Assembly: GCA_024195265.1 (NCBI GenBank)
Contig: JAJLRJ010000005.1
Span: 31,948,036 to 32,012,035 of the forward strand
Direction of reading: 5' to 3'
Length of the DNA: 64,000 nucleotides
DNA from: Dendrophyllia cribrosa
Lineage: Eukaryota; Cnidaria; Anthozoa; Scleractinia; Dendrophylliidae
Position numbers and translations under genes: made by a program
The notes under the pieces: generated by a model
What the model was told of the DNA's origin: nothing
The model's input: only the letters and a program-made list of their open reading frames with translations
Database searches by the model: none
Part shown: positions 4,566-30,306 of the stretch, one piece after another
Layout: every line of letters begins with the position of its first letter
How positions within the stretch are numbered: position 1 is the stretch's first letter

Positions 4566-4675
4566 TGTTGTAATAAGTGCGATTTGAGCTTCAAAAGTTG
4601 ACTCTCATGCGTGACGAATCAGAAATTAACATAATTTACATAATGGCGGGAAAAAGCATAAAGGCGTGACGAAAT
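4566..4675 (+). repeat. Left terminal inverted repeat of the Polinton
   Basis: The 110 bases match the reverse complement of 30197-30306 with about two mismatches. The outer end reads TGTTGTAATAAG, and the mirror end reads CTTATTACAACA, so the element has TG...CA ends as retroviral integrases prefer. The repeat contains GGCGGGAAAAA, whose complement TTTTTCCCGCC resembles an E2F site. The first left ORF begins at the inner edge. Confidence 0.9.
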
Positions 4676-4751
4676 GCTTAACGCGAAGGGTTTTTAGCTT
4701 AATTTTTCATGTAGTTCGAAGAGGGCTTCGCGCAGGATATACTTTCGAAGA

Positions 4752-5015
4752 GTGTTTGTATCACTGGGCTACCGATTTAAAAGCAGCATTAGAAAGAGCC
4801 AGTGTGCGGAGGAGAAGGGTGAAGGAAGTCATGCGGATGAACAATTGTTCAATTCTAGTCTCGAATTGGTTGTTGATTGCGAGATCACACACTCTCAAAT
4901 TTCATTTGTGGTTGAGTTTACTGTGGATGAGACCTGTACTTTTTCTTATGAGGCTCTGTACCAACATTTTGCAAAGTACGCTGAGAAACGTTTTGCGTCA
5001 TATCCACAATTCTGA
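4752..5015 (+). CDS. Possible small acidic protein near left end
   Basis: An open frame of 87 codons without an ATG at its head (GTG at 4752). The residue mix is plausible for a globular protein, ending in an aromatic-rich tail with Tyr, Phe and Lys. A competing frame (4666-5031, 121 codons, ATG-like start within the inverted repeat) overlaps it and is rich in Arg and Leu. At most one is real. No family is recognised, and expression evidence would be needed to choose. Confidence 0.2.
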   Translation: MFVSLGYRFKSSIRKSQCAEEKGEGSHADEQLFNSSLELVVDCEITHSQISFVVEFTVDETCTFSYEALYQHFAKYAEKRFASYPQF

Positions 5016-5116
5016 CAAAAATGTGCTCTAATTCTATTGTTCAAATTCCTAAAAAAGCGTAAAAGGGTCTTTGTTTGTTTGTTGTTTTGTTTTTTTCAAA
5101 CGGCAGTTGCTTATTT

Positions 5117-5620
5117 ATGAGTGAAGACAAGCTTAAATTTGGTTTGAACCTATTCTACAGTTCATCTCGATTGATAAATATCATTTTCATAATGTCGGTA
5201 ATTGAAATAAGGAGTGTGTGGGATACGAGTCGACTAAACCCTTATAGAGAACCGCGTTTAGTTTTCATCGAAGCTAAATTACAGTTTTCTGAAGTAGGTC
5301 TAAATAAGGATGACCTTTTACTAGCAAGTGACCTAAAGAGCAGAGATGTTGGGATACGTCAAAATTTCCATTGTGCTAATATCGATGTAAGCCGCCTTCA
5401 CGCTAAAGCCCGCTTTCTAAAAGTTGACAAGGCTTCCATACAGTTTTGCTTTCAGTCTACGTTCCCGGAATACCACGCAAGCATTTTCAAGAGGGACAAT
5501 CCGTGGCTAAAAATAACGCGATGTACATTGTACACGCGCGAGCAGGAAGAGATTTTTGAGAAAAAGAGAAAAGCTTTCTTAAGAAGCCCCGCCAAGATTG
5601 TTGTAATAGAGGATGATTGA
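5117..5620 (+). CDS. Unassigned Polinton left-arm protein (167 aa)
   Basis: Open frame with ATG at 5117 (a longer upstream start at 5075 would add a Phe-rich leader, and an internal ATG lies at 5192). The body is soluble-looking with mixed charged and hydrophobic residues. It ends in a basic stretch followed by an acidic Val-Ile-Glu-Asp-Asp tail. No membrane segment, zinc motif or catalytic signature is seen. It is the first convincing plus-strand gene inside the left repeat and is followed by minus-strand accessory genes. Polinton left arms vary between lineages, so a lineage-specific role is likely; none is proposed. Confidence 0.5.
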   Translation: MSEDKLKFGLNLFYSSSRLINIIFIMSVIEIRSVWDTSRLNPYREPRLVFIEAKLQFSEVGLNKDDLLLASDLKSRDVGIRQNFHCANIDVSRLHAKARFLKVDKASIQFCFQSTFPEYHASIFKRDNPWLKITRCTLYTREQEEIFEKKRKAFLRSPAKIVVIEDD

Positions 5621-5689
5621 ACCCTAAGTTGTTGACGCATTGCGCGAACTATTGGATACTACCGACGAAGAAGAATTGAAAAGGCAGAA

Positions 5690-5884
5690 TTATCCCAGGA
5701 ACGTACTGTTGCTGAACTTATCTAAACCCGTTATACTTAATACATCGTAGTTTATTTGTAATCGACGTTTAACTTCATATACAACTGCAAACATGTCTGG
5801 TATTTGTTCAAGTCCTTCCAACAATCTACGTTTTGAATCGACATTCAGTATATCCTTTAGTTTACGTATACAATGTGGTATCAC
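5690..5884 (-). pseudogene. Partial duplicate of the 6101-7189 gene
   Basis: A 64-codon minus-strand frame repeats a block of the neighbouring 362-codon ORF. Both contain Arg-(Lys/Arg)-Leu-Leu-Glu-Gly-Leu-Glu followed by a Val-Lys-Arg-Asn/Arg-Leu segment and a Tyr-Asp-(Val/Leu)-Leu segment. The start and end of the longer protein are missing. It is best read as a remnant of a tandem duplication of that gene, with the copy nearer the left repeat decayed. Confidence 0.55.
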
Positions 5885-6100
5885 GTTTAGTTTGTATCGT
5901 GTCGGGTAGTAAGTAGGTAATTATCCGCAAAGTTTGTTATTCACACCGCACTTGAACTATATGCAGGATGAACTTGGACGCAAGTATATGTTTTATTTTT
6001 GTAGACACTTTTGAATGCGAGTAATGTAGGGAAGAAGAAGAAGAAGAATATGACACAATATATTTCAGACACAGCCATTTCAGATAGTGAATAAAATTTT

Positions 6101-7189
6101 TTATTGGAATTTGCTACTTTCTGTTGTACAAATGTCTTGTTTCATTTTACCCCAGAAATGTTTATTTTCTATATTGAAATCCATGTTAGTTTCCGCTCTG
6201 CCTCGCTTATACATACACCTATGATTAGTATTGCTGCAACGAGATGGACAACAAAAGTTATCGGAATTTATAACGCTTTCCCTGAATTCCTTAATTGAGA
6301 GAAAAGGGGGGAGCCATTTTTCTTTCTGTTTTTTAAATGTCAGCTTGTACAACCTTCTCTTGTTTACAACAACAACTTTCGTGCTATGGTGCAACAATTC
6401 ATACCGCTCATGTTTTACGCTGAAGTATTTACATCTTTCAGACTCCTGGCTTACATCCCACATTTCTTCTCTTAAGCTATCTTTCCAGCAGTGCGTGTCC
6501 GCATAAAGGCTTCTGGTCAGATAACACTGTACGCTGAAGTTGTCGAGTGGTGTGATTTCAAGCAAATCGTACCTAATGCTCAGATTTCGTTTAACTTTTG
6601 CAACAACCTCTCGCATGTCTACTATTTTCTCCAAACCTTCAAGTAATTTTCTTTTCTGTTTTATCATTTTCTCGTTCTCACCAAAAGGTAGCGGGTGACA
6701 GTACACTCTTTGAGGAAAGTTTATAATTAAATATTCAATTATCTTAACTTGCATACTAAAGGGAAAGAAAATCCAATAGTCCTCTTTCACAATTTTTGCA
6801 TTTTCACGATTAGCTAGTGTAATTCTTGCGAAGTAACTTGCGGCATCCATGGCGTTTTTTCTCTTTTCGATATCTGCAATTGTAATAGAGAAAGGTTTGA
6901 ACAAACTACATTCCTCTTTACAGCAACGTAAAGACGAAACCTTTATTCTGTTTACACAACACCTCAGAAGAAATCTCGCTTGCCATTTCTGGTCCTTTTT
7001 CTCTACCTTAACAGATAAATATTTCATCTCTTTTACTTGGGAAGTCACGAATAGATCTAAACTTAGTTCTACAATCTCCATTTGCACATTTATCACCATT
7101 ACATTAAGGTTATCTATTAATGGGTATAGTGACAACATCTTCCTGATGGTTTTCTCATGATACATAACAGCTTCTCTCATCGCTGACAT
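6101..7189 (-). CDS. Unassigned accessory protein, main ORF (362 aa)
   Basis: Largest minus-strand gene of the Polinton. The protein is rich in Lys, Glu, Phe and Tyr. A Cys/His cluster near the C-terminus (Cys-Cys-Pro-Ser-Arg-Cys followed by Asn-His-Arg-Cys) could bind zinc. A short stretch before it (Arg-Leu-Tyr-Lys-Leu-Thr ... Asp-Asn-Phe-Cys) weakly echoes a segment of the polymerase gene around 14790-14905 (Gln-Leu-Tyr-Lys-Leu-Thr ... Asp-Phe-Cys). The frame is open well upstream of the ATG and probably continued from the ORF at 7224-7511 through a frameshift near 7230-7245. Function unknown. Opposite orientation to the morphogenetic genes suggests a separate early or host-interaction unit, which is inference only. 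Confidence 0.6.
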   Translation of the reverse strand: MSAMREAVMYHEKTIRKMLSLYPLIDNLNVMVINVQMEIVELSLDLFVTSQVKEMKYLSVKVEKKDQKWQARFLLRCCVNRIKVSSLRCCKEECSLFKPFSITIADIEKRKNAMDAASYFARITLANRENAKIVKEDYWIFFPFSMQVKIIEYLIINFPQRVYCHPLPFGENEKMIKQKRKLLEGLEKIVDMREVVAKVKRNLSIRYDLLEITPLDNFSVQCYLTRSLYADTHCWKDSLREEMWDVSQESERCKYFSVKHERYELLHHSTKVVVVNKRRLYKLTFKKQKEKWLPPFLSIKEFRESVINSDNFCCPSRCSNTNHRCMYKRGRAETNMDFNIENKHFWGKMKQDICTTESSKFQ

Positions 7190-7223
7190 TTTATCGAATT
7201 TTCCGATTTCACAGAAAAAATCA

Positions 7224-7511
7224 TTAGTTATGTAACAACCTGAAAGAGTTATGAAGTGATAAAAAAATTCTGTGAAATTGTTTTAGACTGCCATATCTCT
7301 TTTTAACAATGCTGCTTACTTCTGCAAAGGGTATTGTGTTTTGTAGCAATATAAAGAGATGTTTCTTATAGGCCACTCCTTTTTGCATTTGTCTCTTAGC
7401 TAAGCTTTTATGGTTTCCTATTACTACGTATTCTAATATGAGAAGACGAAGTTCTGTAGGTAGTCTTGTTAAGTACCACTGCAACGACGATTGGTTTCTT
7501 GGATTTTCCAT
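7224..7511 (-). CDS. F-box-like N-terminal ORF (95 aa), likely same gene as 6101-7189
   Basis: Starts at ATG 7511. Residues about 17-32 (Leu-Pro-Thr-Glu-Leu-Arg-Leu-Leu-Ile-Leu-Glu-Tyr-Val) resemble the first helix of an F-box, the motif that docks substrates onto SCF ubiquitin ligases. The ORF stops 34 bases before the next minus-strand ATG. The downstream frame is open for about 20 codons upstream of its own ATG. A single-base slip near 7230-7245 would therefore join the two into a protein of about 470 residues. If so, it would be an F-box-like adaptor carried by the element. The motif match is short and could be chance. Confidence 0.45.
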   Translation of the reverse strand: MENPRNQSSLQWYLTRLPTELRLLILEYVVIGNHKSLAKRQMQKGVAYKKHLFILLQNTIPFAEVSSIVKKRYGSLKQFHRIFLSLHNSFRLLHN

Positions 7512-7939
7512 TTTTCTAGGAAAGCGGGAGAAAAATTAATGCTAATTTTTACTTTTCATTACTAGTCAGTTTTAATAAATTTGTTTTTGTTTTTGTTTTT
7601 TTGTTGTTTTTTTTTTACTTACCAGAGCTCGCTACTTTGGTTGAGATTCTCCTTGCCGGTTTTCTTCTATTTGGTTTCCTTCTTTCTGTTATGTATTTTT
7701 AAAAGAAGTATTGCTTTAGTACTCGTTTACTTATATAAATGGAAATGCAGTGTTTCTTACCTTGCAGACTGCTTGCATAAACTGTGAAAACTTCTTCTGA
7801 GTTCAGTTTCATTTATCTGCCGCGTGTAAAACAATACCTTCAAAAGGTGTTTTCTTTTTTCGATTTAAAAATAAAAAGGGTAATTAAGGGTAATCAAAAT
7901 TAAAAAATTAATTAAAAGGTTATACTGAGGTAAAGTTTA
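7512..7939. other. AT-rich divergent intergenic region
   Basis: Lies between the minus-strand gene ending its 5' side at 7511 and the plus-strand gene at 7940, so it probably holds both promoters. T-runs occur at 7581-7620 and AATTAAAA-type repeats at 7866-7920. The 68-codon ORF here is Phe/Leu-rich low complexity and is not called. Confidence 0.4.
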
Positions 7940-8803
7940 TTGCTTAAAGAAAGAATGTTAAAAGCAAACCGCACGAAGACTTTTGAGAAGAAGAAAGCTA
8001 TGGATTTTGTAAACAGGGAGGTTGAAATAGATTTGGAAAATGAAGAATTTGAAGTCGACACGGACGTAACGCTGGCTAAACAATTTGTGAAGAATGGCGT
8101 TTATTACGCTGCTGCTAGTTTCATTTGTAATCTGGAGTACACAGAAGGTTTCGATTCAACCCTGATACTAGACCGAAAAAATCTGCTTTCCTCTGTTACT
8201 GCAGAAGACGTGCAAGGTATTATAACCGTCTCGCCTTATTTCACTGTAGAAGTTGGGAAAAAGCAAGAACGCGTGGGAATAGACGTCCTAGTTACAAAAG
8301 CCCTACTGCGGAAAGACGAAGATTACGGTGGAAGACTTATTGCCTTTGTCGATGAAACTGAAATTCTTGTAAAATCGAGCGGAAACGATTTAAGGATAAA
8401 TCGAACTCTTTTAGACACTGCGGAATGTTTCGAACAGCAGCCAGTAAAAATCGACAAGCAGTTTGTTCACAAGATTCTGCAAGACATCGGTGAAAACACA
8501 GCTGGTCTTATTAGAAAAGGCCAGGAAGTATACGAGATTTCAGAACAATTACGACAGCGTCTTTTAGAAATGGCTAGAGCTTACAAAAATCTTTTTTCTA
8601 GTGTCGGAATATCGGGGAAAGGAGTACGAAGTTTACAGCAGATTGGTGAAGTGCAAGAAAAATGTAATGGATGTAAACTTGTCATACGTCAACACAACTA
8701 CAGAGACTACAATGCAGGAGATAAAAGAAATTTGAGCAGATACAAACTTTGTTTCACATGCAGCGGGAAAAAAATATTGAAGCGTTCATTCGACGAGGTT
8801 TAA
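7940..8803 (+). CDS. Unassigned protein with C-terminal zinc ribbon (287 aa)
   Basis: Fully open. Likely starts are ATG 7955 or ATG 8000; the first in-frame ATG is not obviously better. The N-terminal half is acidic and the middle contains a helical Gln/Glu/Arg-rich stretch. The last 50 residues hold Cys-x2-Cys ... Cys-x2-Cys spaced by about 30 residues with basic residues between, as in zinc-ribbon nucleic-acid-binding modules. The stop codon lies within the first of three direct 13 bp repeats (AGGTTTAACGAAC, 8798-8836) at the junction with a Penelope fragment, so the original C-terminus may have been longer. No family recognised. Confidence 0.65.
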   Translation: MLKERMLKANRTKTFEKKKAMDFVNREVEIDLENEEFEVDTDVTLAKQFVKNGVYYAAASFICNLEYTEGFDSTLILDRKNLLSSVTAEDVQGIITVSPYFTVEVGKKQERVGIDVLVTKALLRKDEDYGGRLIAFVDETEILVKSSGNDLRINRTLLDTAECFEQQPVKIDKQFVHKILQDIGENTAGLIRKGQEVYEISEQLRQRLLEMARAYKNLFSSVGISGKGVRSLQQIGEVQEKCNGCKLVIRQHNYRDYNAGDKRNLSRYKLCFTCSGKKILKRSFDEV

Positions 8804-8836
8804 CGAACAGGTTTAACGAACAGGTTTAACGAACAC
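8798..8836. repeat. Three direct copies of a 13 bp repeat at an insertion junction
   Basis: AGGTTTAACGAAC occurs three times in a row exactly where the 287-codon ORF ends and Penelope-type coding sequence begins. It may be a target duplication or slippage product formed when the fragment inserted. Confidence 0.6.
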
Positions 8837-9310
8837 AGACGTACAGTTGACAAAACTAATACTAAATCTACCCCCACCACTGTTGCTGAACATTTTCGTT
8901 CACATAACCACTGCTACACTGACATGCAACTAATCCCACTTGAACTAATCTACTCCTCGCGTGACTCAATCAGAAAAGCCAGGGAATCTTTTTTAATAGA
9001 TTTGGCGGGAACCTTGGAACCCCATGGTTTAAACAAACGTGACGAACTGTAATACTTAGTTATGTTATCTTTTAGTATTTCTTTTCGTATTATCTTATGT
9101 ATGTCATTTCTGGCACTCCTTTAAATTACGAAATATGTATTGCGAAACTATCCATTTTATAATATTGTAATTTCATTTTTAAATTTACTAACATCTAAAC
9201 CTGAAGAAGGCTGGTATGGCCACCCGAAATATTGTTTGCTAAAATATAACGTTGTGATATCAGCCTTGCAGTAGTCTTTGACTTCGCGTGCTTATTTTTA
9301 TTTGACGAGG
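8825..9310 (+). mobile_element. Penelope-like element 3' fragment (family 1)
   Basis: The first ~230 bases encode the C-terminal part of a GIY-YIG-type Penelope protein, ending at the TAA near 9051. Its signature is a Phe-Arg-Ser-His-Asn-His segment, then Thr-Leu-Glu-Pro-His-Gly-Leu-Asn-Lys-Arg before the stop. The region after the stop is the 3' tail, including CTGAAGAAGGC ... CCGAAAT at 9201-9230, a layout like a hammerhead ribozyme core. It differs from the Penelope family at 47470-49233. Strong 5' truncation is typical of these retroelements. Confidence 0.7.
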
Positions 9311-9394
9311 CACGCCTACATACCAAAATTAATTTAAAAAAATCACAAGTAAAGATGAGTGTCTTTGATTGATATATCTTTTCAAAAGTATTGT

Positions 9395-9770
9395 GGAAAC
9401 TAAGAGTTGTTATTAACGATGCGATCTCCGCTCCTAGCGTAAATAATGAAACAATGACAGGAATGCAATTAGCGGCAATGATGTTTGTTCCTAATCAACA
9501 ATGAGCAATGACCAACTCATGAACATTGAACAACTCATGAACAATGTACAACTCATGAACAATGAAATATTACTTTTCGCTTTATACAAAAAAGACCAAA
9601 ATTCTCGCAGCAAAAATACAAAGAAAGCTTCGCAAGAGGGTTCTTCTGTTAATCTTCAACCTACTCAATTTTCTGTCGCAGTTTTAACTCCTGCACAAGA
9701 TGTTATGTTACCTGCTACATCCCATGTACCTAATCATTATGCAAACGGTCTTTATTTCTCTATTTAATTA
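9395..9770 (+). pseudogene. Degenerate duplicate of the 5' part of the 418-aa gene
   Basis: Segments of 10080-10365 recur here in scrambled order: GTTATTAACGATG near 9409, ATGCAATTAGCGGCAATG near 9463, and a ~165 base block from 9598 to 9762 nearly identical to 10202-10367. Between them are short repeats of AACTCATGAACAATG (9505-9565). The 88-codon ORF that spans them is a by-product. The arrangement points to local duplication and slippage upstream of the intact gene. Confidence 0.65.
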
Positions 9771-10008
9771 GCGGCAATGATGTTTGTTCCTAATGAACAA
9801 TGAGCAATGAACAATGAACAATATATGACAACTGATAAACAATGAACAATGAAATATTAGTTTTCGCTTTATACCTTACGTATCATGCATTTGCATGTGC
9901 AGTGTTTTGAGGGCAGACGCGGAAAAATAATCATGGCTTCTGAGAGTTTTTTAGCCGTTCCAACAGTCCAATCTACAAGAAACTGACGCTGTTTTAAGTT
10001 TAAATCAC
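9771..10008. repeat. AACAATGA-rich spacer
   Basis: Contains a second copy of the ATTAGCGGCAATGATG segment and clustered AACAATGA units (9795-9850). This is the likely 5' region of the 418-codon gene. No promoter motif is clear. Confidence 0.4.
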
Positions 10009-11265
10009 ATGTCTTTGCTTACTTCTGTGGAAGCAATAAGTAATGGTGGTGAAGACGAAGAATTCAATCTAGACACGCTACGTGTTATTAACGATGTGAT
10101 TTCCGCTCCATCGAGCGTGAATAATGAAACACCTGGCGTCAATGTCGACAATACAAGCAGTCAAACCATGCAACGGAGCACGACTTCGAAAAAAGGCCGA
10201 ACTTCTCGCAGCAAAAATACAAAGAAAGCTTCGCAAGAGGGTTCTTCTGTTAATCTTCAACCTACTCAATCTTCTGTCGCAGTTTTAACTCCTGCACAAG
10301 ATGTTTCGTTACTTGCTACGCCCTATGTGCCTAATCATTATGCAAACGGTCTTTATTTCCCTGATCAACAGTTCAACAACGTTCCCACAATACAAGCACA
10401 GTCACGTCCGCTAGCTTCTCACACGCCTTCTTGCAGTTCAATGACAAGAATGCAATTAGCGGAAATGATGTTTGTTCCTAAACCCTCTGAGGACAATGGA
10501 AAAAACGTTGCAAAAACTAATTACCTAAATCAATGTAAATCCAGATTGCGCAAATACCAGAGTGACGCCATGCGGGATTTCGCGGACGTGTTCTATATGC
10601 CTTTCGTCAACGAAACAAGTTTCGACAGTTTGGAAGGCACAGAGATGCAGTTTGCTTTAAGGAAGAAAGTGTTTGACTGTATGGACACCCTCAATAAACA
10701 TTCTCAAGCAGTTTGGGAGTTCGAAAAAGGCATTTATTCTTGCGTACTCCCTTTAAGAGAGAAAGTGGGTGGGGTTTTGTCAGACAACCATAATTTCAAC
10801 AGTGTCACTCCTACGCGCGTAAGCAATGCTTTGAAAAGAAAGCGACAAGAAGAATTAGAGAATTGTCGGGATCGGGCGTTATCTGTAGAGGTTATTGAGC
10901 AGCTTAAACCTCCAAAGAGCTATTGTTTGAAACAATGGCCAAGCAGACCAGCAGGTGAGCAATTTGAAAAATTACAACCTTTATTCGATGCCTTTGTTTT
11001 GATGTGGCAAGACTCCGACCTAAAGTTGCATACATACGAATGGGTACAAACCTTGGAGCAGTTTCGAGCTTTGCTTTTGAGTCTGAAGGAAAAAGAGCCG
11101 AAATACTACGAAGAGTTAACGCGTTATCTGGTTACCGCCGGTAAAACGCGTGTGCGTTGGTATAAAGATGTGGTCAATCGCAAAATGGACGAGATGGTGT
11201 ACGTGGAATTATGCAAGAAACAAAACAGACAAAAAGCGCCACATGACATTTTGCGGTTGATGTGA
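10009..11265 (+). CDS. Unassigned Polinton protein (418 aa), intact
   Basis: Open from ATG 10009 to TGA 11263. The first ~150 residues are low-complexity, rich in Ser, Thr, Asn and Gln with a basic Ser/Lys patch. From about residue 150 the protein is folded-looking, with many Trp, Tyr and Lys and a predicted helical Leu/Glu/Lys segment before a basic C-terminus. No catalytic motif is recognised. It survives intact among broken neighbours, which suggests either chance or late decay of the others. Its 5' part is duplicated just upstream. Terminal-protein, structural or regulatory roles are possible but not supported. Confidence 0.65.
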   Translation: MSLLTSVEAISNGGEDEEFNLDTLRVINDVISAPSSVNNETPGVNVDNTSSQTMQRSTTSKKGRTSRSKNTKKASQEGSSVNLQPTQSSVAVLTPAQDVSLLATPYVPNHYANGLYFPDQQFNNVPTIQAQSRPLASHTPSCSSMTRMQLAEMMFVPKPSEDNGKNVAKTNYLNQCKSRLRKYQSDAMRDFADVFYMPFVNETSFDSLEGTEMQFALRKKVFDCMDTLNKHSQAVWEFEKGIYSCVLPLREKVGGVLSDNHNFNSVTPTRVSNALKRKRQEELENCRDRALSVEVIEQLKPPKSYCLKQWPSRPAGEQFEKLQPLFDAFVLMWQDSDLKLHTYEWVQTLEQFRALLLSLKEKEPKYYEELTRYLVTAGKTRVRWYKDVVNRKMDEMVYVELCKKQNRQKAPHDILRLM

Positions 11266-11433
11266 TCAACCTCTTTTGAAAAAGAACAAACTGTCAAATG
11301 AACAATGAACTGTCAGATTTTTGCATAAAAATTAAGTATTAATTGCAGCGAAAAGTGCACACATTTTCATTAATCATTTACTCTGAACGCTGAGAGATTG
11401 ACACTGCGATAGCAAACTAGAAGTGAAGTTAAA

Positions 11434-12169
11434 ATGGCTGGCGGTAAACGCAGTACTAAGAGAACAGCTTCACCTTTCATCGAGCGAGAGGTGCAGGTCA
11501 GTGAAGGTGACTACAGTGGAAACGAGGTTGCACCAAAAACAGTCGATTTGACTGATTTCCAAGACGATTCGCCAGAAATAGATTCTTCTGCAAAGTCGCA
11601 TCGCGCACTGGACGCCTCTCGGCGAAAAAAGGCTCGAAGAAGTGAAGCCGAAAAACCACAGCCAGGTTTAGACGGAGAAGAAGGTGAAGAGGAAGGCGAG
11701 GATGGAGAGACTCTGCGCAGGCGAGAAGTTCTGAAGAAGCTCAAAGAAGCTCAAAGAAGCCAAAGAAGAGTCTAAGACCATTCAAAGCGGCAACTTCAGC
11801 TGCAGGCGTGTACGCTGCCCACTATGCCACGCTCAGATGAGCGAGTCGACCAGCGAGGAAGGCAAAACGTATTTATGGTGCCCAAACAAACGTAACCTGC
11901 CTTACAAGCCGAACAATGAGAAAGCAAGATACCTCGGCGAGTTGTTGGCGCGCATCAATGCAAAGTTTGTCAACCCCAATCGTCCGCCGGACTGCAAGCA
12001 CGGTGAGACTGCAGCCCTAACCCATCTGAACAGTCCCAAGGTAAGACCGCAACTCCAAGATACGCTGTTCTTTATCTGCCGGAGAAAGGTTGCTGAAGGT
12101 CGCTGTGATTTTGTCGTCGCTGCAGAGGAGGAAGACGTACTCGAAGCGGAATACCTAGAAACTATTTAA
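11434..12169 (+). pseudogene. Acidic/zinc-motif protein broken by a 10 bp tandem duplication
   Basis: Two ORFs, 11434-11775 and 11837-12169, are parts of one gene. The first encodes a charged, acidic N-terminal region. The second frame, read upstream of its ATG, is open back to the repeat and contains a Cys-x5-Cys-x2-Cys-His cluster (about 11795-11835) that continues to a Trp-Cys-Pro-Asn further on, possibly a zinc-binding module. Direct repeats of TCAAAGAAGC at 11741-11750 and 11751-11760 add ten bases and shift the frame. This is a clear slippage lesion. Function unknown; located upstream of the polymerase. Confidence 0.6.
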
Positions 12170-12193
12170 AGAATAGAAACGAAAAAATTAGCA

Positions 12194-12668
12194 AATTTGC
12201 GGAAGAAAATCGCAAAGCTAACGAAAACAGTTATGAATTAGGTTTGCAGGCCGCATTGAAAGCCAAAGAAAAGAAACAGCTTACAAAAGACCGATAAGAA
12301 CGTTGAACTCTTTTACACGTTTTACTCTGTATAGTCAGTAGTAAGTTAGTTTTTCCAACGTTTTAAAATTAATTTATGACGAAAAACAATGTTGTAATCC
12401 GATTTTGTATTAGGTTAGATTTCTGCTTTGAATTTGCGAAAGAAAATCGCACAGCTAACGAAAACGGTTATGAATTAGGTTTGCAGGCCGCATTGAAAGC
12501 CAAAGAAAAGAAACGGCTTACAAAAGACCGATAAGAACGTTGAACTCTTTTACACGTTTTACTCTGTATAGCTAGTAGTAAGTTAGTTTTTCCGACGTTT
12601 TAAAAATAATTTATGACGAAAAACAATGTTGTAATCCGATTTTGTATTAGGTTAAATTTCTGCTTTGA
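12194..12668. repeat. Direct tandem duplication, 237 bp unit
   Basis: 12194-12430 and 12431-12668 are nearly identical. Each contains the end of a short open frame rich in Lys, Glu and Ala (stop near 12295 and 12534) and a 3' AT-rich part. The frame in unit 1 overlaps the end of the preceding gene in another frame, so it may be that gene's original C-terminus. An AATAAA polyadenylation-like signal follows at 12699. Confidence 0.75.
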
Positions 12669-18748: not shown

Positions 18749-18971
18749 TTCATCCCCCCACCGACGCAGCACCACAGTTTCTCTAGAAACCAACCCCATT
18801 CATTTGAAAATTTCATCAGCTGTTGAGGCGGGCGGACGGTTAACGTCGGAGAGGTGGAGCCTTACACGAGACAGGGGATAACAGAGGCATCAGTAACACA
18901 GTCGAGAGAGACGGAGAGGAGTGGATTTCACGAGTACGCCTTGCGGTTAAAAAATACTGTTTTGCAAAATA

Positions 18972-21734: not shown

Positions 21735-21740
21735 AAAAGG

Positions 21741-23301: not shown

Positions 23302-23788
23302 ATGTACGGAACGGCGAGACGAGACCTGGTTTTCTTCCAGCGAGGTGCTGGTTATGCCAGCGGTTTAAACCCTTATCAGGAAGGAGGTAGCAAAAGGTGT
23401 CAGAAAATGCTTCATGAAATGTACTGCAGCAAAACCCTACACGCTCCACGATCTAGTGGGAAAAAGAAAAAAGGGGGTAAGAGGAGCAAGCAGCAAGCAG
23501 CAAGCTGAGACTGTGATTTTGCGCCGTAGCAGCAGAGTGAGAAAACCGAAAATGCGCGGAAGTGGGAAGAAAGGCAGTCAGAAGGGCGGATTCGGCGGAC
23601 TTCTGGCTGGGCTGGGAACTGCCGTAGTGAACGGATTGGCGGGCTTGGTTGTAGGAGGACTGCAAGGCGTCATTGGCGGAATCGCAGGTCAAGTTGGAAG
23701 GGGGAAGAAAAGAAAGGTTGCGCGGGAAGGAATCACCCAAGAACACACTAGACGCTTCAGCACGAGAACAAGACACAGCTTACGCTAA
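23302..23788 (+). pseudogene. pX/pVI-like basic and Gly-rich membrane-active protein, frameshifted
   Basis: ATG 23302 starts a frame with Arg-Arg-Asp-Leu-Val-Phe-Phe-Gln-Arg-Gly, then a basic region that stops at 23506. A second frame from about 23414 continues through a basic nuclear-signal-like stretch into a Gly/Leu/Ala/Val segment of some 35 residues with regular Gly spacing (23586-23690) and a Gly-Arg-Gly-Lys-Lys-Arg-Lys end. This layout fits the small lytic or core peptides reported in adintoviruses and adenoviruses. The frames overlap with a +1 relation, so one indel around 23410-23500 broke the gene. A further open frame to 23885 may be the original C-terminus. Confidence 0.55.
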
Positions 23789-23931
23789 TTCGAAGGAAAG
23801 TCTGTCCAAGAAACACGAGGCCGATCTGCATATGGCTGACACTATCTATAATTACAAAGACAAGAGTCTTTTAAAAAGGCAGTAAGCTGCGCGCTGCGAC
23901 TCAAAGTGCTACTTGGCTTTTGAGAGTGAAG

Positions 23932-24824
23932 ATGCCTCTGCTAAAGTACTGGACGGGCGGGATGCCTGGGCAAGTCAGACTGACGGAAACTACAATAAAC
24001 CCGAAACGAGTGACCTCCACAGCACCCTATTTGACTCTACCAGCACTAACGCCCGACGAAAAAGAAACAAAGAAGCTAGCTGTGGAGCAGCAAAAATTGC
24101 AGCAGAAAATCAAAGCTGCCGAGAAGAAAGCTGCAGAATTAGAGGACGAGAAGTCAGAAGAGGAGTTTGACAGCGACTCTGCGGAATACTCGAGTGATTC
24201 CAAAGAAGTGAGCTGCGAAGAAGCTAGCGCGCCTCCACGCTTTACGAAAGCACAGCTTCGAGCCGAAGCAAAGTTGCAAGAGCTGAACAGCATCAACAGA
24301 GATTTAGCCAAAACAGCCTCTCGAACGCGTGATAAACAGAATAAAAGCCGAGCACAATAAGCGCAAGCAGAATGCCCTGCAAGAAAGAAACGCGACCTTG
24401 AAACAGAGGTTGGCGCAGAAACAGGCTGCTACACGAGAAGCAAAGGCGCGCAGAAAGCAGGAGAGCATTAGTGCTGCAGTCTAATATGAACGAGACGCGT
24501 ATGCAGAACATCGAAAACGTGTTGCAGAATGTGATGAAAGAGCAGCAGAAATCTAAAACAGCTTTGAAAAACAACAACAGCAGCAAAAGCAAAGGCAGGA
24601 AAAGAAAGAAAGCTTCAGACGCTGACAATTCCTACTCAGAGACAATATCTTCCTCTTCTGAAAACGAGTCTGAAGACTCTTCCGACACGGAGAAAAAGTC
24701 GAAAAAGAAAACAGACAAAAAGCAGCAGGGTGAGAAGAAAAAGAAGAAAAAGAATAGTGAAAAGTCCTCTAAAGAAAGCTACAACTATGGCTCCATAGGT
24801 AACTTCATAAAATCAATAAACAAG
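23932..24824 (+). pseudogene. Coiled-coil, Ser/Lys-rich protein with two frameshifts
   Basis: ATG 23932 opens a frame with a Pro/Thr-rich start and then a Lys/Glu/Gln/Ala heptad-rich helix (24055-24160) and an acidic Ser block. It stops at 24358. A second frame (24359-24480) continues the coiled coil and a third (24471-24824) carries Asn/Gln helix, then Ser/Glu/Asp and a Lys-rich tract, ending in a hydrophobic tail. Joined through two one-base shifts near 24350 and 24478 this would be about 300 residues. It sits in the virion-gene cluster, so a core or scaffold role is possible. No family recognised. Confidence 0.45.
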
Positions 24825-24866
24825 TAGACAGATTTCATTCGCCTCGCAAACTTGACAGAGTAAAAG

Positions 24867-25166
24867 ATGGGCATCAAACGTAACCATGTGGAATTGGAGA
24901 CGGAGGGGTTGGACGCCTCCTCTCTGCAAGAGATGGTGGAGATACAAGCCGTCAAGCAGCCTTTGGTCAAACAAGCCAAAGTAAACATGCAGGTCGATAA
25001 AACGTTTGTCAAAGGACGCACTCAGCGCGTCTTTGCCGAAGAGAAAGGCGGCGCTCCTGCTAACGGGTGGATGAGCAGAGCACAGCTCGATGGCAACTTT
25101 ACTTTCAGAGTGGAACCTCCCGACGCCTCTGTTTTCAAACCCTATGACGTAACCTTTCAAAAATAG
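24867..25166 (+). CDS. Unassigned virion-cluster protein (99 aa)
   Basis: Intact frame from ATG 24867 to TAG. Hydrophilic, with charged N-terminus (Lys-Arg, then Glu-rich), a Val/Gln/Lys middle and a Trp-containing, Phe-rich C-terminal third. No Cys, no membrane segment. It lies 26 bases before the next gene in the same direction, consistent with co-transcription. Unknown family; a small structural protein is a reasonable guess from context only. Confidence 0.5.
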   Translation: MGIKRNHVELETEGLDASSLQEMVEIQAVKQPLVKQAKVNMQVDKTFVKGRTQRVFAEEKGGAPANGWMSRAQLDGNFTFRVEPPDASVFKPYDVTFQK

Positions 25167-25192
25167 AACGCTCTGACGGTGCCGGCGGGTGG

Positions 25193-26198
25193 ATGAGCTT
25201 GGACTACGATGACGTGTACAGAACCGGACATTTCAGCGCAGTGAGAAACCACATAAGAAATCAAGCAGACACTGCTCCTGGCGGAGTTGCACAATCAAAC
25301 GGAGCTCACATAGCACCAGCTCCTAGAGCCCGATTTTCGAGTCCGCTACCTGTAATACATACAGTTGAAGTGCGTATGAACACTGTAGATAGTCTGAACA
25401 CCCCAACCGAGTATGACGCTGTGAAAGAGTATGTGCGCTGGCTTATGAACACGACCGACGCCGAAAAAAGAGACTTGGAGACAATGCGAGACAAGAACTA
25501 CTGGTACGACCTCTCAGCTGTGCAGTTTGGATGCTTTCATTGCACCGAGGACAGAGACTGTGTGGGAATATACCGCACAGAAGCCGAATTCGATGCCAGC
25601 GGTGGCAAACTAAGAGAAAAGTTCAAAAACGTCATCGCCATGGATAAAGATTTGCAGAAAAACGGAGGAATAAAAAGATACACCAGCAACATCCCACACG
25701 GTTTCTTTGAACGAGTGAACAACCAGCCCGGTTGGCAGAATTTCGACATGAACCTCAAACTGTCAAAAGACAACCTGCTGCTAGTGGCCCGCACATCTCA
25801 CGTTGAAGGTAAAGGAGCCGCTTTAGCGGAAAACACAGTGCGCATCATGTACAATCTCAACGAAACCTACATTGAGTACCAGTACCTGGAAACACACAAA
25901 AGCGAGGGCATGGAGACTTTGGTGGAAGACGGCGGAGCAGATGAATCTGTTGATAAGCGAATCCATAACCAACCCTTTCACGCACACAGAGGGACAGATT
26001 CTGGACAAACTCAGCGATACTGACTTTGGAGACATATTCCCTAAGAAGGCTTACTTTTTTGTACACTTGCAGTCCGAAATGCGTAGAGATGGGAGCCTCG
26101 ATCGAGATGCCTACAGCTTTAGACCCTGGCATATAACGGGTATACAACCTAGGCAAGGAGACAGACCCATTTTTGAGGAGGAGCCTACCATCCCGTAG
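25193..26198 (+). pseudogene. Unassigned structural-like protein, one frameshift (~335 aa)
   Basis: ATG 25193 opens 276 codons that end at 26021. From about 25930 another frame continues to TAG 26196 with clearly protein-like sequence (Phe-Gly-Asp-Ile-Phe-Pro-Lys-Lys and a Trp-His-Ile-Thr-Gly segment). A single-base shift near 25930-25950 therefore separates the last ~88 residues. The protein has two Cys in a Phe-His-Cys / Asp-Cys pair near residues 116-123 and a beta-rich second half. It directly precedes the protease. A capsid or minor virion function is likely by context. No motif decides it. Confidence 0.55.
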
Positions 26199-26217: not shown

Positions 26218-26625
26218 ATGACGGACCCCAAAGTTTTGCCAGGTACACACTGGGTGTTGTTTTTCCGCCAAAGCAGTTCCCACCCGCCCATTTTCTTCGA
26301 CTCCTACGGAAAAACACCTAGCTACTACTACGCAGGCTGGGAGTTCTTCGACTCGCACAGAAGGAGCAAAGAAGACTTTCAGCAGGAAGATACCACTGTC
26401 TGCGGCGACTTCTGTCTGTACGTGGCGAGGCGCGTGGCCACCGGATACAGTCTTCAAACAGTCTTGGAAAGCTTCCAACCGGATGACGAAAAACACAACG
26501 ACGAGATGGTCTTTTCCCTAGTGCACCGTAGATTTAAATTTCTAAACAAAACCGGACACGGTAGAGTGGTTAAGAAACAATACATTCAGAACTGTCAAGT
26601 TTGTAAAGCGAGAAAAATTTCCTAG
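26218..26625 (+). CDS. PRO: Adenain-like (Ulp1-fold) cysteine protease
   Basis: Would process capsid precursor proteins in the virion, as adenovirus protease does. Visible catalytic residues: His in Pro-Gly-Thr-His-Trp (residue 11), Asp in Phe-Phe-Asp-Ser-Tyr-Gly, and Gln ... Cys in Asp-Thr-Thr-Val-Cys-Gly-Asp-Phe. The C-terminus has a Cys-x2-Cys pair. The protein is 135 residues, shorter than usual, and begins where the family's conserved Asp-Pro ... Gly-Thr-His-Trp core starts. An in-frame TAG lies right before ATG 26218. The normal N-terminal ~40 residues are therefore missing or moved to another frame. The rest is open. Downstream spacing of about 250 bases separates it from the ATPase. 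Confidence 0.85.
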   Translation: MTDPKVLPGTHWVLFFRQSSSHPPIFFDSYGKTPSYYYAGWEFFDSHRRSKEDFQQEDTTVCGDFCLYVARRVATGYSLQTVLESFQPDDEKHNDEMVFSLVHRRFKFLNKTGHGRVVKKQYIQNCQVCKARKIS

Positions 26626-26873: not shown

Positions 26874-27635
26874 ATGGCGTTGAAGGATTCTACGGGAAAC
26901 ACGGCGCTAATGAGCCGCTTGCGTTTTCAGGTGCCTGGCAACATGTGTTGTTACGGGCCAACCTGCTCGGGGAAAACAACCTGGATATGCAAGTTACTAT
27001 CAAATTTACCCGAACACTTCCAAACGAAAAATGGAGAAGCTATAAAGCGGATTGTATACTGTTACAACTCCAACTTCCAACCCACTTTCAAAATTCTGCA
27101 GAAAAAAGGAGTTGAATTTATGGAAGGTATGCCGGGAGATGTCGAAGCGCTTTTTCCAAAAAGCAAGCAGCCTGGAATTTTGATTCTGGATGATTTGATT
27201 CTGGATGATTTGATGAGTGTCATGAACAAGGACGAGCAAGCACTTCACACGGTGACAGTGACGGCGCACCACAGCAATATTTTTCTAATATTTACGCAGC
27301 AGTGTTTACACCCGAGAGGCAGAAACGCGGTCCAACTACGACAAAACTTTCACTACAAGGTGTTGTTCCCGTATCCGGCTGACAAACAGACCGTTGAAAG
27401 GTTTCTCAACAACAATGAAACCGGCGAACAACTTAAATGGTTGTACCACTACTACATTTTCTGCTGCGAAGAATACAACAGGTATTTTATAATAGCCGCG
27501 CACCCGGAGGACGAGAACAGATTAGCCACCTACAGGACTAACGTGTTGGTAGGAGAAGAACTGCAGCGTGTTCTAGTGGACAAGCAAAGGTTAAAGAATT
27601 TCAAAACAAAAACAAAGCCTTTGAAAAGATTGTAA
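26874..27635 (+). CDS. ATP: Genome-packaging ATPase (A32/FtsK-HerA type), intact
   Basis: ATG 26874 opens 253 codons to TAA. Walker A reads Gly-Pro-Thr-Cys-Ser-Gly-Lys-Thr (about residue 28). Walker B follows at residues 101-108 as Ile-Leu-Ile-Leu-Asp-Asp-Leu. A Thr-Gln-Gln segment further on fits the sensor of this family. The family packages viral DNA into capsids. A perfect 15 bp tandem duplication (27181-27195 and 27196-27210) repeats Leu-Ile-Leu-Asp-Asp inside Walker B, adding five residues without shifting frame. Length is typical for Polintons (about 250). Transcribed with two or three small genes that follow at 1-4 base spacing. Confidence 0.93.
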   Translation: MALKDSTGNTALMSRLRFQVPGNMCCYGPTCSGKTTWICKLLSNLPEHFQTKNGEAIKRIVYCYNSNFQPTFKILQKKGVEFMEGMPGDVEALFPKSKQPGILILDDLILDDLMSVMNKDEQALHTVTVTAHHSNIFLIFTQQCLHPRGRNAVQLRQNFHYKVLFPYPADKQTVERFLNNNETGEQLKWLYHYYIFCCEEYNRYFIIAAHPEDENRLATYRTNVLVGEELQRVLVDKQRLKNFKTKTKPLKRL

Positions 27636-27636
27636 A

Positions 27637-27849
27637 ATGTTCCGAAATCCGTCAGATAGATTCATAGCAGGCAAGTACAAAGCAGAAAAAATGCCCAAGC
27701 TGCGAGCTGTCAGAGTGGCAGAGGACTTATATACACCTTCGCACAGAGAGGGCATCGCATTCGTTAACACTAATACCAACAAAATAGTAGTGCCGACAAG
27801 CTACGTGGACGCTCTGAAACTCAAGAAGCAGATGAAGGAAAAGCAATGA
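27637..27849 (+). CDS. Small basic protein after ATPase (70 aa)
   Basis: ATG 27637 begins one base after the ATPase stop codon. The product is Lys/Arg-rich, with a short Val/Asn/Thr central segment and a Lys-rich C-terminal helix. The stop overlaps the next start by four bases (ATGA), typical of compact viral operon-like spacing. No family recognised. Confidence 0.5.
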   Translation: MFRNPSDRFIAGKYKAEKMPKLRAVRVAEDLYTPSHREGIAFVNTNTNKIVVPTSYVDALKLKKQMKEKQ

Positions 27850-28178
27850 GCAAACGGTTGTACGACAAATATGCAGCGGTGAGAGACTATGTAAATAAAG
27901 GAAAACTGCCGAAAACTAAAGAGGAGACACTCGCTATCGCAGACGTTTTTCACAACCATGAAGACAACACCGACGTGAAGGAATCGAGCGAGCACACAGA
28001 AGAAGTTCACTGTTTAACAGCTTTGTCTCACCCTTGGAAAGAAAGACGAGAAGCCCTGCGTTCGCAACGGGCACTTTGCAGAGAAGTTTTGCGCAGACTG
28101 ATAGAACCGAACTTGACTAAAATAGATAAGAAAGATCTTAAACGCTTGCGTAAAAAGAAAATCAATGAGCAAGAATAG
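27846..28178 (+). CDS. Unassigned charged protein (110 aa)
   Basis: ATG 27846 overlaps the previous stop. The N-terminal part is Lys/Tyr-rich, the middle has His/Glu clusters and the C-terminal third is an Arg/Lys/Leu helix ending in Lys-Lys-Lys-Ile-Asn-Glu-Gln-Glu. It overlaps the next ORF by 14 bases. Intact. No membrane segment. Function unknown, but position between ATPase and the coiled-coil protein suggests a packaging or virion role. Confidence 0.5.
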   Translation: MSKRLYDKYAAVRDYVNKGKLPKTKEETLAIADVFHNHEDNTDVKESSEHTEEVHCLTALSHPWKERREALRSQRALCREVLRRLIEPNLTKIDKKDLKRLRKKKINEQE

Positions 28179-29104
28179 CATTTTAAACAACAAATATTTT
28201 CAAGAGTGCATGCTGGTGAGCAGCAAGGACTGGAACAAACTGCAGTCCCAGCAAGAGGAGAATCAGACCGGCGGAGCTTCGGTACAAGGGCTTGATGTGG
28301 ATTTAGCCAGAGTGAACCACTCGGTGCGCTCTGCTATTATATACCAAGTGCAGCGGATACGTCAAATAGAAAAAATTATTCAGGCCCTGAAAGATGGAAG
28401 ACTAAAGCATCACAAGCTGCCTGAGGGAATGACTCTTGAAGGGCTGATAGCTAGAAAACAGAAACTGCTCAACAAATACGGAAACAGAATTATGAGCATG
28501 GGCATCCCGCCAGCCACTTACTTCCATATGCAGAAAATGCAGCAGTTGCAGCAGAAACAAATAGATACTGCCAGAGCCAACGCTGAAGCTAACGCAGCTA
28601 CAAAAGCACTGCAGGAAAACATCCTCGAACAGCTGAAGAACAGCAGAAGAACAATACCGCTAAACTGAAAGAAATTTTAGCCGGAAAAGAAAAAGGGAAA
28701 CTTCCGCTGCATTTGAACGATAGCGACGAGGAAGATGAGATGGATGTAAAAGAAGGGATGAAAGACGGCAAGGAAGAAGAAGTACAAGGCATACTTTCCC
28801 GAATGTCATCCTCTCTGTTGTCCGTGTTGAGCCCGAAAAAATCGCCTTCAAAAGAATTACAAGTGCGATATCAGCCGGACGACGGTGAAATTCACGTGCA
28901 AACTTCACCATCTCGATCGAGAGGAATGAAACGCTTGAGAGGTGATCACCCCATGAAAACCAGATCTCAAGATACCCCGCAACACGGAAAAGGAATGGGT
29001 GTCCCTGCTGTTAAAAAGCAACACGTAGAATTTCATTTGCCGGAAGACTGTGATGCGTACATAACTAGACCGCTATACAAAAAACCTTGGAGAAGTACTA
29101 CATA
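28165..29104 (+). pseudogene. Coiled-coil protein with one frameshift (~312 aa)
   Basis: ATG 28165 opens 167 codons ending at TGA near 28666. The parallel frame, open from about 28630 and continuing through 28713-29104, carries on the same Gln/Glu/Ala/Lys coiled-coil composition. Near 28630, a one-base slip in CAGCTGAAGAACAGCAG accounts for the break. The second part has an acidic Asp/Glu block, a Ser-rich and Arg-rich stretch and a Pro-Leu-Tyr-Lys-Lys-Pro C-terminus. A short Met/Gln-rich helix lies at 28520-28560. No family recognised. Confidence 0.55.
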
Positions 29105-29263
29105 AAAACAGATTAATTTTTCTCTAAGCTATTAAGTAACACATGTATTCCATCTATTGTATTTTTGACATATTCAATAAAGCGTGACTGTAATTTCAAT
29201 TTTAAAAAGGTTGTGAATAAAAATAAATTTCATAAAGTTCTGTGTGTTATTCGATGCGTAAAG

Positions 29264-29443
29264 ATGGGGCGTGAAGACTTGATTTTCAAAGCACGAAGAA
29301 AGGAAAAGCCTGCAATATTAAAACCAAAAATGAAACACGTGGAGAAAGTAGACCCTTGGAACAAATTCAAGAAACGAGGGTTGGAACCGCTGAAAGAGTT
29401 CTTCAAGAAGAAATGTATCAGGACGCGGGTGGCGGGAATCTGA
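29264..29443 (+). CDS. Small Lys/Arg-rich ORF (~59 aa)
   Basis: ATG at 29264 is the better start than the upstream 29165 (the extra 33 residues are Asn/Lys low complexity). The product is very basic, with Trp-Asn-Lys-Phe-Lys-Lys-Arg and a Phe-Phe-Lys-Lys-Lys segment. Could be a small DNA-binding or nucleolar-type peptide. Last plus-strand gene before the right end. AATAAA at 29176 belongs to the upstream gene. Confidence 0.4.
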   Translation: MGREDLIFKARRKEKPAILKPKMKHVEKVDPWNKFKKRGLEPLKEFFKKKCIRTRVAGI

Positions 29444-29520
29444 AGTATCTTTTCCAACTTCAGAACAACAGCGGGGAATACGGTTTGAGTTTTAGATAAC
29501 GCTTTCTCCTAAAATAACAC

Positions 29521-29982
29521 TTACTTACTCATTATGTAACAGATGGAATCATACATGACGCTATGTTGATTTTGGTTAATGTAATTAGCAATGCTCAAGT
29601 CAAAACTTAAATTCGCATAGTCTATACAGCGTTTGGCTTCTGCCTTGCACAAAGTTCTAGTCTGCAGGCCTTCGTACGTTAACCGAAATCCACAAGTGTT
29701 TCCCAACGCGTTCACATCTCGTTCTATCGTAGTCACTTTCTTGTGTGAAAACTTCTCTGCAGCCCTCTTCCGAACTTGAAGCTTCTGCTCTCTGGGAAAA
29801 TGCATCAAACGTCGAAATGCACATCTCTTCTTGAAGCGCGAATAGACCCAACGGTCGAAAACCCATCTCCAAAGCCTCCCTTTTCTCTTGTTGCCTGCCA
29901 GCCATTTGTTCAGGTTGCTCTGCGAAGATCTTTCTTCGGGCGTGGAGAAAGTTTCCCGGCGCTGTGCATTTTCTGAAGGCAT
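29521..29982 (-). CDS. Unassigned right-end minus-strand protein (153 aa)
   Basis: ATG 29982 opens an intact frame. The first 70 residues are Arg/Trp/Lys-rich (Arg-Leu-Trp-Arg-Trp-Val-Phe-Asp-Arg-Trp) and the rest is more ordinary. A competing start in another frame at 30040 continues in a different register, so an original start further out with one frameshift is possible. Unlike its neighbours it points toward the middle of the element, mirroring the 6101-7511 unit at the other end. No family recognised. Confidence 0.5.
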   Translation of the reverse strand: MPSENAQRRETFSTPEERSSQSNLNKWLAGNKRKGRLWRWVFDRWVYSRFKKRCAFRRLMHFPREQKLQVRKRAAEKFSHKKVTTIERDVNALGNTCGFRLTYEGLQTRTLCKAEAKRCIDYANLSFDLSIANYINQNQHSVMYDSICYIMSK

Positions 29983-30196
29983 TTTTCTTAACCGGTGCGA
30001 AAGTCAATTTGTTCGGCACTTGGAAAAGCGGTAAACTCATGCTTACAACACGTTTTCAAATAAAAACCGATAACCCATGACGCTAACCGCAGGTTTTTAT
30101 CTACTTGAACAAACCAATGAAAATGCAGTAAGTATTAATTAAGCCTCCTGACAACGCGTGTAACTAAGATGGTCTAAGGAACCCGCTTCTCTAGGA

Positions 30197-30306
30197 ATTT
30201 CGTCACGCCTTTATGCCTTTTCCCGCCATTATGTAAATTATGTTAATTTCCGATTCGTCACGCATGAGAGTCAACTTTTGAAGCTCAAATCGCACTTATT
30301 ACAACA
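30197..30306 (-). repeat. Right terminal inverted repeat of the Polinton
   Basis: Mirror of 4566-4675. The outer end reads CTTATTACAACA. Contains TTTTCCCGCC (E2F-like) and TGTTAATTTCCGATTCG near the centre. Confidence 0.9.

What the first reader, a model, noticed from the sequence alone, without database searches (positions are those of the whole stretch)
4566..30306. Near-complete 25.7 kb Polinton/adintovirus with TIRs, TSD and full virion gene block
Seen directly: 110 bp inverted repeats differing at about two positions, TCCAT on both sides, polymerase and integrase motifs, protease and ATPase motifs, and a block of structural-like genes. The left arm (5117-12300) and several small right-hand ORFs match no family I know and may be a lineage-specific gene set.
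Basis: partly seen in the sequence, partly recalled or inferred. Interest (0 to 1): 0.75.

Follow-up and report, generated by a model that had tools for sequence, protein, structure and literature searches.

The report
Decayed Maverick-Polinton, probably from coral
A full-length but broken copy of a known kind of virus-like mobile element (Maverick-Polinton) sits in what is probably a stony-coral genome; the part worth following is a left arm with two conserved genes of unknown function.

Summary
A 25,741-bp element lies at 4566-30306, bounded by 110-bp inverted repeats (2 mismatches) and a 5-bp TCCAT duplication. It holds a family-B polymerase (Pfam DNA_pol_B_2), a DDE integrase (weak transposase-model matches), an adenain-like protease (motifs only) and an A32-type ATPase, all on one strand: the Maverick-Polinton anatomy.

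Two corrections. The copy is decayed: polymerase, integrase and both capsid candidates are interrupted, and two Penelope-like remnants lie inside. 'Adintovirus' is not supported: that label needs a BLAST-recognisable hexon, and no capsid candidate matched anything searched.

The left arm is not private to this copy. Its 418-aa and 282-aa proteins have 13 and 7 relatives. One relative of each, and one of the ATPase, come from contigs of the same length, 29,128 bp, so both genes probably belong to the element. The two named relatives are from the stony coral Desmophyllum pertusum. Fold and function stay unknown. New member of a known kind; modest interest.

The parts
4561..4565 (.). Left copy of the 5-bp target-site duplication, TCCAT
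4566..4675 (+). Left terminal inverted repeat, begins TGTTG
   Evidence: 110 bp, 98.2% to 30306-30197; score 211 vs control maximum 30
5117..5620 (+). Left-arm ORF, 167 aa, no family
   Evidence: the stop-to-stop frame has 0 Pfam families at E up to 1
6101..7282 (-). Left-arm minus-strand open frame, 393 aa, no family above cut-off; genuineness uncertain
7224..7535 (-). Left-arm minus-strand open frame, 103 aa; its stretch LPTELRLLILEYV looks F-box-like by eye only
   Evidence: only DUF7730 at E 0.068, below cut-off
7955..8803 (+). 282-aa left-arm protein, conserved family, C-terminal CxxC pairs; function unknown
   Evidence: 7 relatives, 69-82% identity; alignment A2
8804..9052 (+). Remnant of a Penelope-like (GIY-YIG) retroelement inside the left arm
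   Evidence: 32 of 76 residues identical, E 5e-12, to the C terminus of the RT/GIY-YIG ORF at 47463-49037; itself no Pfam hit
9408..9874 (+). Duplicated debris of the 418-aa gene and short repeats
10009..11265 (+). 418-aa left-arm protein, conserved family; function unknown. The frame is open from 9955; the first 12 residues of the closest relative are not matched in this frame
   Evidence: 13 relatives, 42-83% identity; tblastn of P0001 covers residues 13-444 at 9967-11262
11413..11775 (+). Open frame, 120 aa, no family
11735..12169 (+). Open frame, 144 aa, only a sub-threshold zinc-ribbon match
   Evidence: Zn_ribbon_recom E 0.0037, 18 bits vs cut-off 25.3
12194..12669 (+). Two tandem copies of a 237-bp unit
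   Evidence: 96%
14308..18298 (+). Family-B DNA polymerase in three open pieces (14080-16020, 16021-17478, 17465-18298): an in-frame stop separates the first two, the third is in another frame
   Evidence: DNA_pol_B_2 E 1e-7 and 5.5e-15 for the first two pieces, no such hit for the third; exonuclease, A and C motifs
18508..18754 (+). Inserted 3' end of a Penelope-like element, between polymerase and integrase
   Evidence: 98.4% to 48993-49239 (sequences)
19622..20619 (+). DDE (rve-type) integrase in two open pieces of different frames (19622-19957, 19750-20619)
   Evidence: IS481 model E 8.1e-10, IS3 1.2e-5; PHROG transposase 1.5e-6; rve_3 only 0.062; D, D, E motifs
20579..22654 (+). Candidate minor capsid (penton) protein by position; three open pieces in two alternating frames
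   Evidence: no match
23369..24827 (+). Three small basic or coiled ORFs (23369-23788, 23875-24360, 24402-24827), possible minor virion or core proteins
   Evidence: no family above cut-off
24864..26198 (+). Candidate major capsid protein by position; three overlapping open pieces (24864-25166, 25148-26023, 25827-26198) in two frames
   Evidence: no match above chance
26218..26625 (+). Adenain-like cysteine protease, motifs only; no N-terminal part seen in this frame
   Evidence: GTHW, FFDSYG, QQEDTTVCGDFC; no profile or PDB match
26874..27635 (+). A32-type packaging ATPase, open frame
   Evidence: 12 relatives, 32-92% identity; Pox_A32 in 8 of 13 family members at E up to 0.1, best 8.9e-6, window itself 0.011; Walker A and B
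27846..29105 (+). Three small ORFs right of the ATPase (27846-28178, 28165-28668, 28740-29105), no family
29521..30003 (-). Minus-strand open frame next to the right TIR, no family
30197..30306 (-). Right terminal inverted repeat, ends CAACA on the + strand
30307..30311 (.). Right copy of the 5-bp target-site duplication, TCCAT

Best explanation
An endogenous, decayed Maverick-Polinton, probably of a stony-coral lineage. Shown: a unit bounded by inverted repeats and a 5-bp duplication, with one-strand core genes for a family-B polymerase, a DDE integrase, an adenain-like protease (motifs) and an A32-type ATPase, now interrupted and invaded by retroelements. Inferred from the known family: linear DNA copied by a protein-primed polymerase, possibly packaged by the ATPase into a capsid of the two candidate virion proteins, and inserted by the integrase with a 5-bp stagger. 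Also inferred: the left arm carried two lineage-conserved accessory or early genes (418 and 282 aa), plausibly regulatory or nucleic-acid-binding. The copy has since stopped working and is being eroded.
For: TIRs and TSD. DNA_pol_B_2 above cut-off in two pieces and motifs in order. Integrase piece: IS481 8.1e-10, IS3 1.2e-5, PHROG transposase 1.5e-6. ATPase family with Pox_A32 matches. Protease motifs. Order integrase, candidate mCP, small ORFs, candidate MCP, protease equals the second module of vertebrate Mavericks (PMC8097293 section 7). Left-arm relatives and the shared contig length 29,128 bp of P0007, P0016 and P0023. Decay.
Against: No capsid protein, terminal-protein or vOTU domain was confirmed by profile or structure. 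Integrase and window-ATPase matches lie below curated cut-offs. The first integrase piece and third polymerase piece have no relevant Pfam hit. The ends (TGTTG...CAACA) differ from the AG/AGT/AC-repeat ends of vertebrate Mavericks, and the ATPase lies behind the protease, not with the polymerase. No relative was found in IMG/VR. No tree could be built against named Polintons.
Confidence: 0.9

Rival explanations
1. An endogenous adintovirus in the strict sense: a member of the group whose PolB and hexon are mutually recognisable by BLASTP and whose integrase has a C-terminal chromodomain.
For: PolB with Cys and His in contexts that could be the OTU-like site, rve-type integrase, adenain-like protease motifs and ATPase. 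The integrase C terminus looks chromodomain-like by eye.
Against: No hexon recognised; no chromodomain called by Pfam; cnidarian MCPs fell outside the cluster holding all known adintoviruses (PMC10120064 passages). No named adintovirus sequence was at hand for a direct BLASTP.
Confidence: 0.1
2. The left arm (about 4.7-12.7 kb) is host or foreign DNA captured by this copy and not part of the element's own gene set.
For: GC of 5-10 kb is 0.31-0.40, as in the flanks, against 0.43-0.52 at 14-29 kb. It holds a Penelope-like remnant, tandem repeats and debris.
Against: Relatives of the 418-aa and 282-aa proteins and of the ATPase each have a longest contig of exactly 29,128 bp (P0007, P0016, P0023); another 418-aa relative (P0002) lies on a contig of 25,931 bp.
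Confidence: 0.12
3. The copy is intact and the frame breaks are assembly errors.
For: The open frames are long and the conserved motifs survive; ATPase, 418-aa and 282-aa frames are open.
Against: Breaks in at least four genes, an in-frame stop, a retroelement piece between polymerase and integrase, duplicated debris; 2 differences in the 110-bp TIRs.
Confidence: 0.1

Closest known systems
Vertebrate Mavericks (PMC8097293; passages and section 7 read)
   Same: TIRs and TSD; PolB, integrase, protease, ATPase; integrase - mCP - other - MCP - protease order; both modules on one strand as in Xenopus tropicalis; accessory regions at the sides; most copies degraded
   Different: 25.7 kb against 12.7-24.6 kb for intact ones; 5-bp instead of 6-bp TSD; TGTTG...CAACA ends; ATPase behind the protease; left-arm proteins of unknown family
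Cnidarian Polintons (Nematostella, Hydra; seen only as tree labels in PMC4642659, and in passages of PMC10120064)
   Same: Animal group; a capsid outside the main animal Maverick cluster would explain why the candidates match nothing
   Different: Not compared here: no sequences at hand
Adintoviruses (PMC11071296; passages and section 16 read)
   Same: PolB, rve-type integrase, adenain-like protease motifs, ATPase
   Different: Hexon not recognised; chromodomain not called
Mavirus and endogenous virophages, EMALEs (PMC8547959; passages)
   Same: rve-type integrase, 5-bp TSD in range, copies interrupted by retroelements
   Different: Host and retroelement type differ (Ngaro there, Penelope-like here); genes not compared

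Membership tests
Maverick-Polinton | Terminal inverted repeats | tested here: met
Maverick-Polinton | 5-6 bp target-site duplication (range from PMC8547959) | tested here: met
   TCCAT, 5 bp; the 6 bp given for vertebrate Mavericks is not met
Maverick-Polinton | Family-B DNA polymerase | tested here: met
   DNA_pol_B_2 above cut-off in two pieces; motifs; gene interrupted
Maverick-Polinton | Protein-primed type with terminal-protein and vOTU domains | tested here: inconclusive
   Cys and His contexts seen, no profile match for that part
Maverick-Polinton | Retroviral-type (rve, DDE) integrase | tested here: met
   IS481 8.1e-10 and IS3 1.2e-5, below curated cut-offs; PHROG transposase 1.5e-6; D, D, E motifs; gene interrupted
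Maverick-Polinton | Adenain-like protease | tested here: inconclusive
   motifs only; no profile or PDB match
Maverick-Polinton | A32/FtsK-type packaging ATPase | tested here: met
   Pox_A32 in 8 of 13 family members at E up to 0.1, best 8.9e-6; window itself 0.011, below cut-off
Maverick-Polinton | Double and single jelly-roll capsid proteins | tested here: inconclusive
   no sequence match for the candidates; no structure was predicted for them
Maverick-Polinton | PolB and integrase grouping with Polinton proteins in a tree | not tested
   no named reference sequences at hand
Adintovirus | Hexon recognisable by BLASTP to other adintoviruses | tested here: inconclusive
   no adintovirus hexon at hand for a direct test; IMG/VR and profile searches of the candidate pieces gave nothing
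Adintovirus | PolB with N-terminal OTU-like domain | tested here: inconclusive
   Cys and His contexts only
Adintovirus | Integrase with C-terminal chromodomain | tested here: inconclusive
   no Pfam chromodomain at E up to 1; resemblance by eye only

The most novel reading that the evidence does not exclude
Stony corals carry, and may still be infected by, their own lineage of 25-30 kb Maverick viruses with a capsid unlike that of other animal Mavericks and a conserved left 'early' arm (the 418-aa and 282-aa families) known from no other virus group; the 29,128-bp contig would be an intact or free member.
Probability: 0.3. Interest if true: 0.55.

Novelty: new member of a known kind. Interest (0 to 1): 0.3.

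Why it matters
Repeats classed as Maverick make up 1.41-6.74% of three coral genomes (PMC12005156, passages), yet the listings of my paper searches showed no account of a complete coral element. A fully bounded copy with its gene order, ends and target duplication gives a frame for annotating that fraction. The two conserved left-arm families give a handle for finding better-preserved relatives, which would test whether corals have Maverick virions.

Tried and rejected
IMG/VR (viral contigs): seven scans, with the ATPase, an ATPase alignment of six sequences, the 418-aa protein, one PolB piece and three capsid-candidate pieces, found no relative. Single-protein scans find close relatives only. 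Prokaryote genomes with the same ATPase alignment: none. Phage records with one capsid-candidate piece: none. PDB by sequence: no row for one capsid-candidate piece, the larger integrase piece, the protease, one PolB piece and the 418-aa alignment; weak rows for the ATPase alignment (best E 0.024, VirB11-like ATPase) and the 282-aa alignment (E 0.88).

AlphaFold2 gave mean pLDDT 42.6 for the 418-aa family and 28.9 for the 282-aa family, so no fold search was made and little is built on them.

Rfam: no match in the window at gathering scores. A kinship of the polymerase with the frame at 32972-33466 was not supported (best E 4.3), nor a repeat between the two minus-strand left-arm frames (E 0.11). 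Sub-threshold Pfam rows such as IMS, Stonustoxin_helical or YkuI_C are treated as chance. A 6-bp TSD, obtained by shifting the boundary by hand on the letters, does not fit. The open-frame shuffle test does not separate the element from its flanks (see full report).
Full report
OBSERVATION. The two ends are really there. The left repeat starts at 4566 and the right one ends at 30306; over 110 bp they differ at 2 positions (98.2%). The local alignment of the ends scores 211, against at most 30 in 1935 control pairs of window stretches with the same spacing. TCCAT stands directly outside both ends. Moving the boundary by hand does not give a 6-bp duplication. The unit is 25,741 bp. Published TSD lengths are 6 bp for intact vertebrate Mavericks (PMC8097293, passages) and 5-6 bp for mavirus and Maverick-Polintons (PMC8547959, passages), so 5 bp is in the known range. 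The ends TGTTG...CAACA differ from the AG-, AGT- and AC-repeat ends of vertebrate Mavericks (PMC8097293, section 7).

CORE GENES. Three open pieces at 14080-18298 make up a family-B polymerase. The first two match Pfam DNA_pol_B_2 above cut-off (1e-7 and 5.5e-15); the third has no such hit but holds YCDTDS. Exonuclease motifs I-III, palm motif A and motif C are found in order (motif names recalled). Upstream of the exonuclease a Cys and a His stand in contexts that could be the vOTU site described for polinton polymerases (PMC11071308, abstract and section 9), but no profile confirms that domain. The larger integrase piece at 19750-20619 matches IS481 and IS3 models (8.1e-10 and 1.2e-5, both below the curated cut-offs), PHROG transposases (best 1.5e-6) and Pfam rve_3 only at 0.062; the smaller piece matched nothing. 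D, D and E motifs are present across the two pieces. The ATPase at 26874-27635 has 12 relatives at 32-92% identity among 157 candidates; 8 of the 13 family members, window included, match Pox_A32 at E up to 0.1, best 8.9e-6, the window's own match being 0.011 and below cut-off. The protease at 26218-26625 is recognised only by His, Asp, Gln and Cys motifs; profiles and PDB give nothing.

CAPSID. 20579-22654 and 24864-26198 are the largest unassigned coding regions between integrase and protease. The order integrase, first candidate, small ORFs, second candidate, protease is that of the second module of vertebrate Mavericks, where the first is the minor and the second the major capsid protein. 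This is an argument from position. Profile libraries, PDB, phage records and IMG/VR did not recognise the pieces tried (the one PHROG row, E 0.024 and of unknown function, is treated as chance). A survey of major capsid genes found that cnidarian ones were the only animal ones outside the main Maverick-Polinton cluster, which holds all known adintoviruses (PMC10120064, passages). A divergent capsid would fit that. The adintovirus label, which rests on a recognisable hexon (PMC11071296, section 16), should not be used here without that test.

DECAY. The polymerase has an in-frame stop between its first two pieces and changes frame near 17.47 kb; the integrase changes frame between its first and second D motifs; the first capsid candidate consists of three open pieces in two alternating frames and the second of three overlapping open pieces in two frames. 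A 247-bp piece at 18508-18754 is 98.4% identical to 48993-49239, the 3' end of an element with reverse transcriptase and GIY-YIG matches (the second just below cut-off; sequences). I call it Penelope-like from recall of that domain pair. A second, more diverged remnant lies at 8804-9052 (32 of 76 residues identical). There is a 237-bp tandem duplication at 12194-12669 and duplicated debris of the 418-aa gene at 9408-9874. Assembly error may explain single frame changes but hardly all of this.

LEFT ARM. None of the eight left-arm frames given to Pfam matched a family above cut-off. But two of its proteins are conserved elsewhere. The 418-aa protein has 13 relatives at 42-83% identity among 2855 candidates; two carry an organism name, both Desmophyllum pertusum. 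The 282-aa protein has 7 relatives at 69-82% among 1155 candidates, with two CxxC pairs at the C terminus in the window and in the four longest relatives. One relative of each (P0007, P0016), and one of the ATPase (P0023), have a longest contig of exactly 29,128 bp. That the three share one contig is inferred from the equal length, since contig names are not shown. It is the best evidence that both genes travel with the element. Other 418-aa relatives lie on contigs of 384 kb to 2.3 Mb (P0001, P0003, P0005, P0006, P0009), as expected of integrated copies. The C-terminal part of the 418-aa family is predicted helical at low confidence (mean pLDDT 42.6); the 282-aa model is unusable (28.9). A regulatory or nucleic-acid role is a guess.

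CODING SIGNAL. In one search stop-free runs of at least 100 aa on the + strand exceed the largest of 30 shuffles in all six stretches of the element, but also in all three flank stretches; on the minus strand they exceed it in five of six and two of three. So this test does not set the element apart from its flanks, which hold other mobile elements. Only the density does: 242-395 aa per kb on the + strand in the four core stretches, 149-163 in the two left-arm stretches and 55-133 in the flanks.

WHAT IS NOT KNOWN. The window's own assembly could not be searched, so copy number, better-preserved copies and the host species are open; that the host is a stony coral rests on the two named relatives. 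Starrett 2021 and Kapitonov and Jurka 2006 were not held. Seven full-text searches listed, by title and start of abstract and not always all hits (20 of 29, 20 of 34 and 25 of 31), no account of a complete coral Maverick. Two of the papers, seen as passages, report Maverick repeats in coral genomes.

VERDICT. A real, fully bounded, decayed Maverick-Polinton, probably in a stony coral. New member of a known kind; the conserved left arm is the part worth following.

Noticed in passing
1-2054 and 30868-36085: Both flanks hold copies of one other repeat in the same orientation (95.3% for 1-1128 vs 30868-31993; 93.2% for 1125-2000 vs 35135-36031); the left copy lacks about 3.1 kb that the right copy has.
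   Followed up: partly
38922-41591: An 889-aa open frame with YqaJ recombinase (1e-16) and Ulp1 protease (1.9e-6) domains; a diverged copy, about 70% identical DNA, lies at 33.8-36.5 kb.
   Followed up: partly
32474-33466: Frames near the YqaJ/Ulp1 copy hold FNSGKYDLN, which looks like a polymerase exonuclease motif; no Pfam hit and no similarity to the element's polymerase.
   Followed up: partly
42420-43979: A 519-aa minus-strand frame with THAP (4.2e-9) and DDE_Tnp_4 (4.3e-51) domains, a DNA transposase.
   Followed up: no
47463-49037: Reverse transcriptase (5.5e-9) plus GIY-YIG (2.5e-4, just below cut-off) ORF, Penelope-like by recall; its 3' end recurs inside the element at 18508-18754.
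   Followed up: partly
27179-27214: A 15-bp in-frame tandem repeat in the Walker B region of the ATPase; the window protein differs there from all 12 relatives in the alignment.
   Followed up: no
16489-16527: Between exonuclease and palm the polymerase holds an endonuclease-like stretch (PHROG 13076 'endonuclease', E 0.0014; EFFGCYFHGCPRC), Vsr-like by recall.
   Followed up: no
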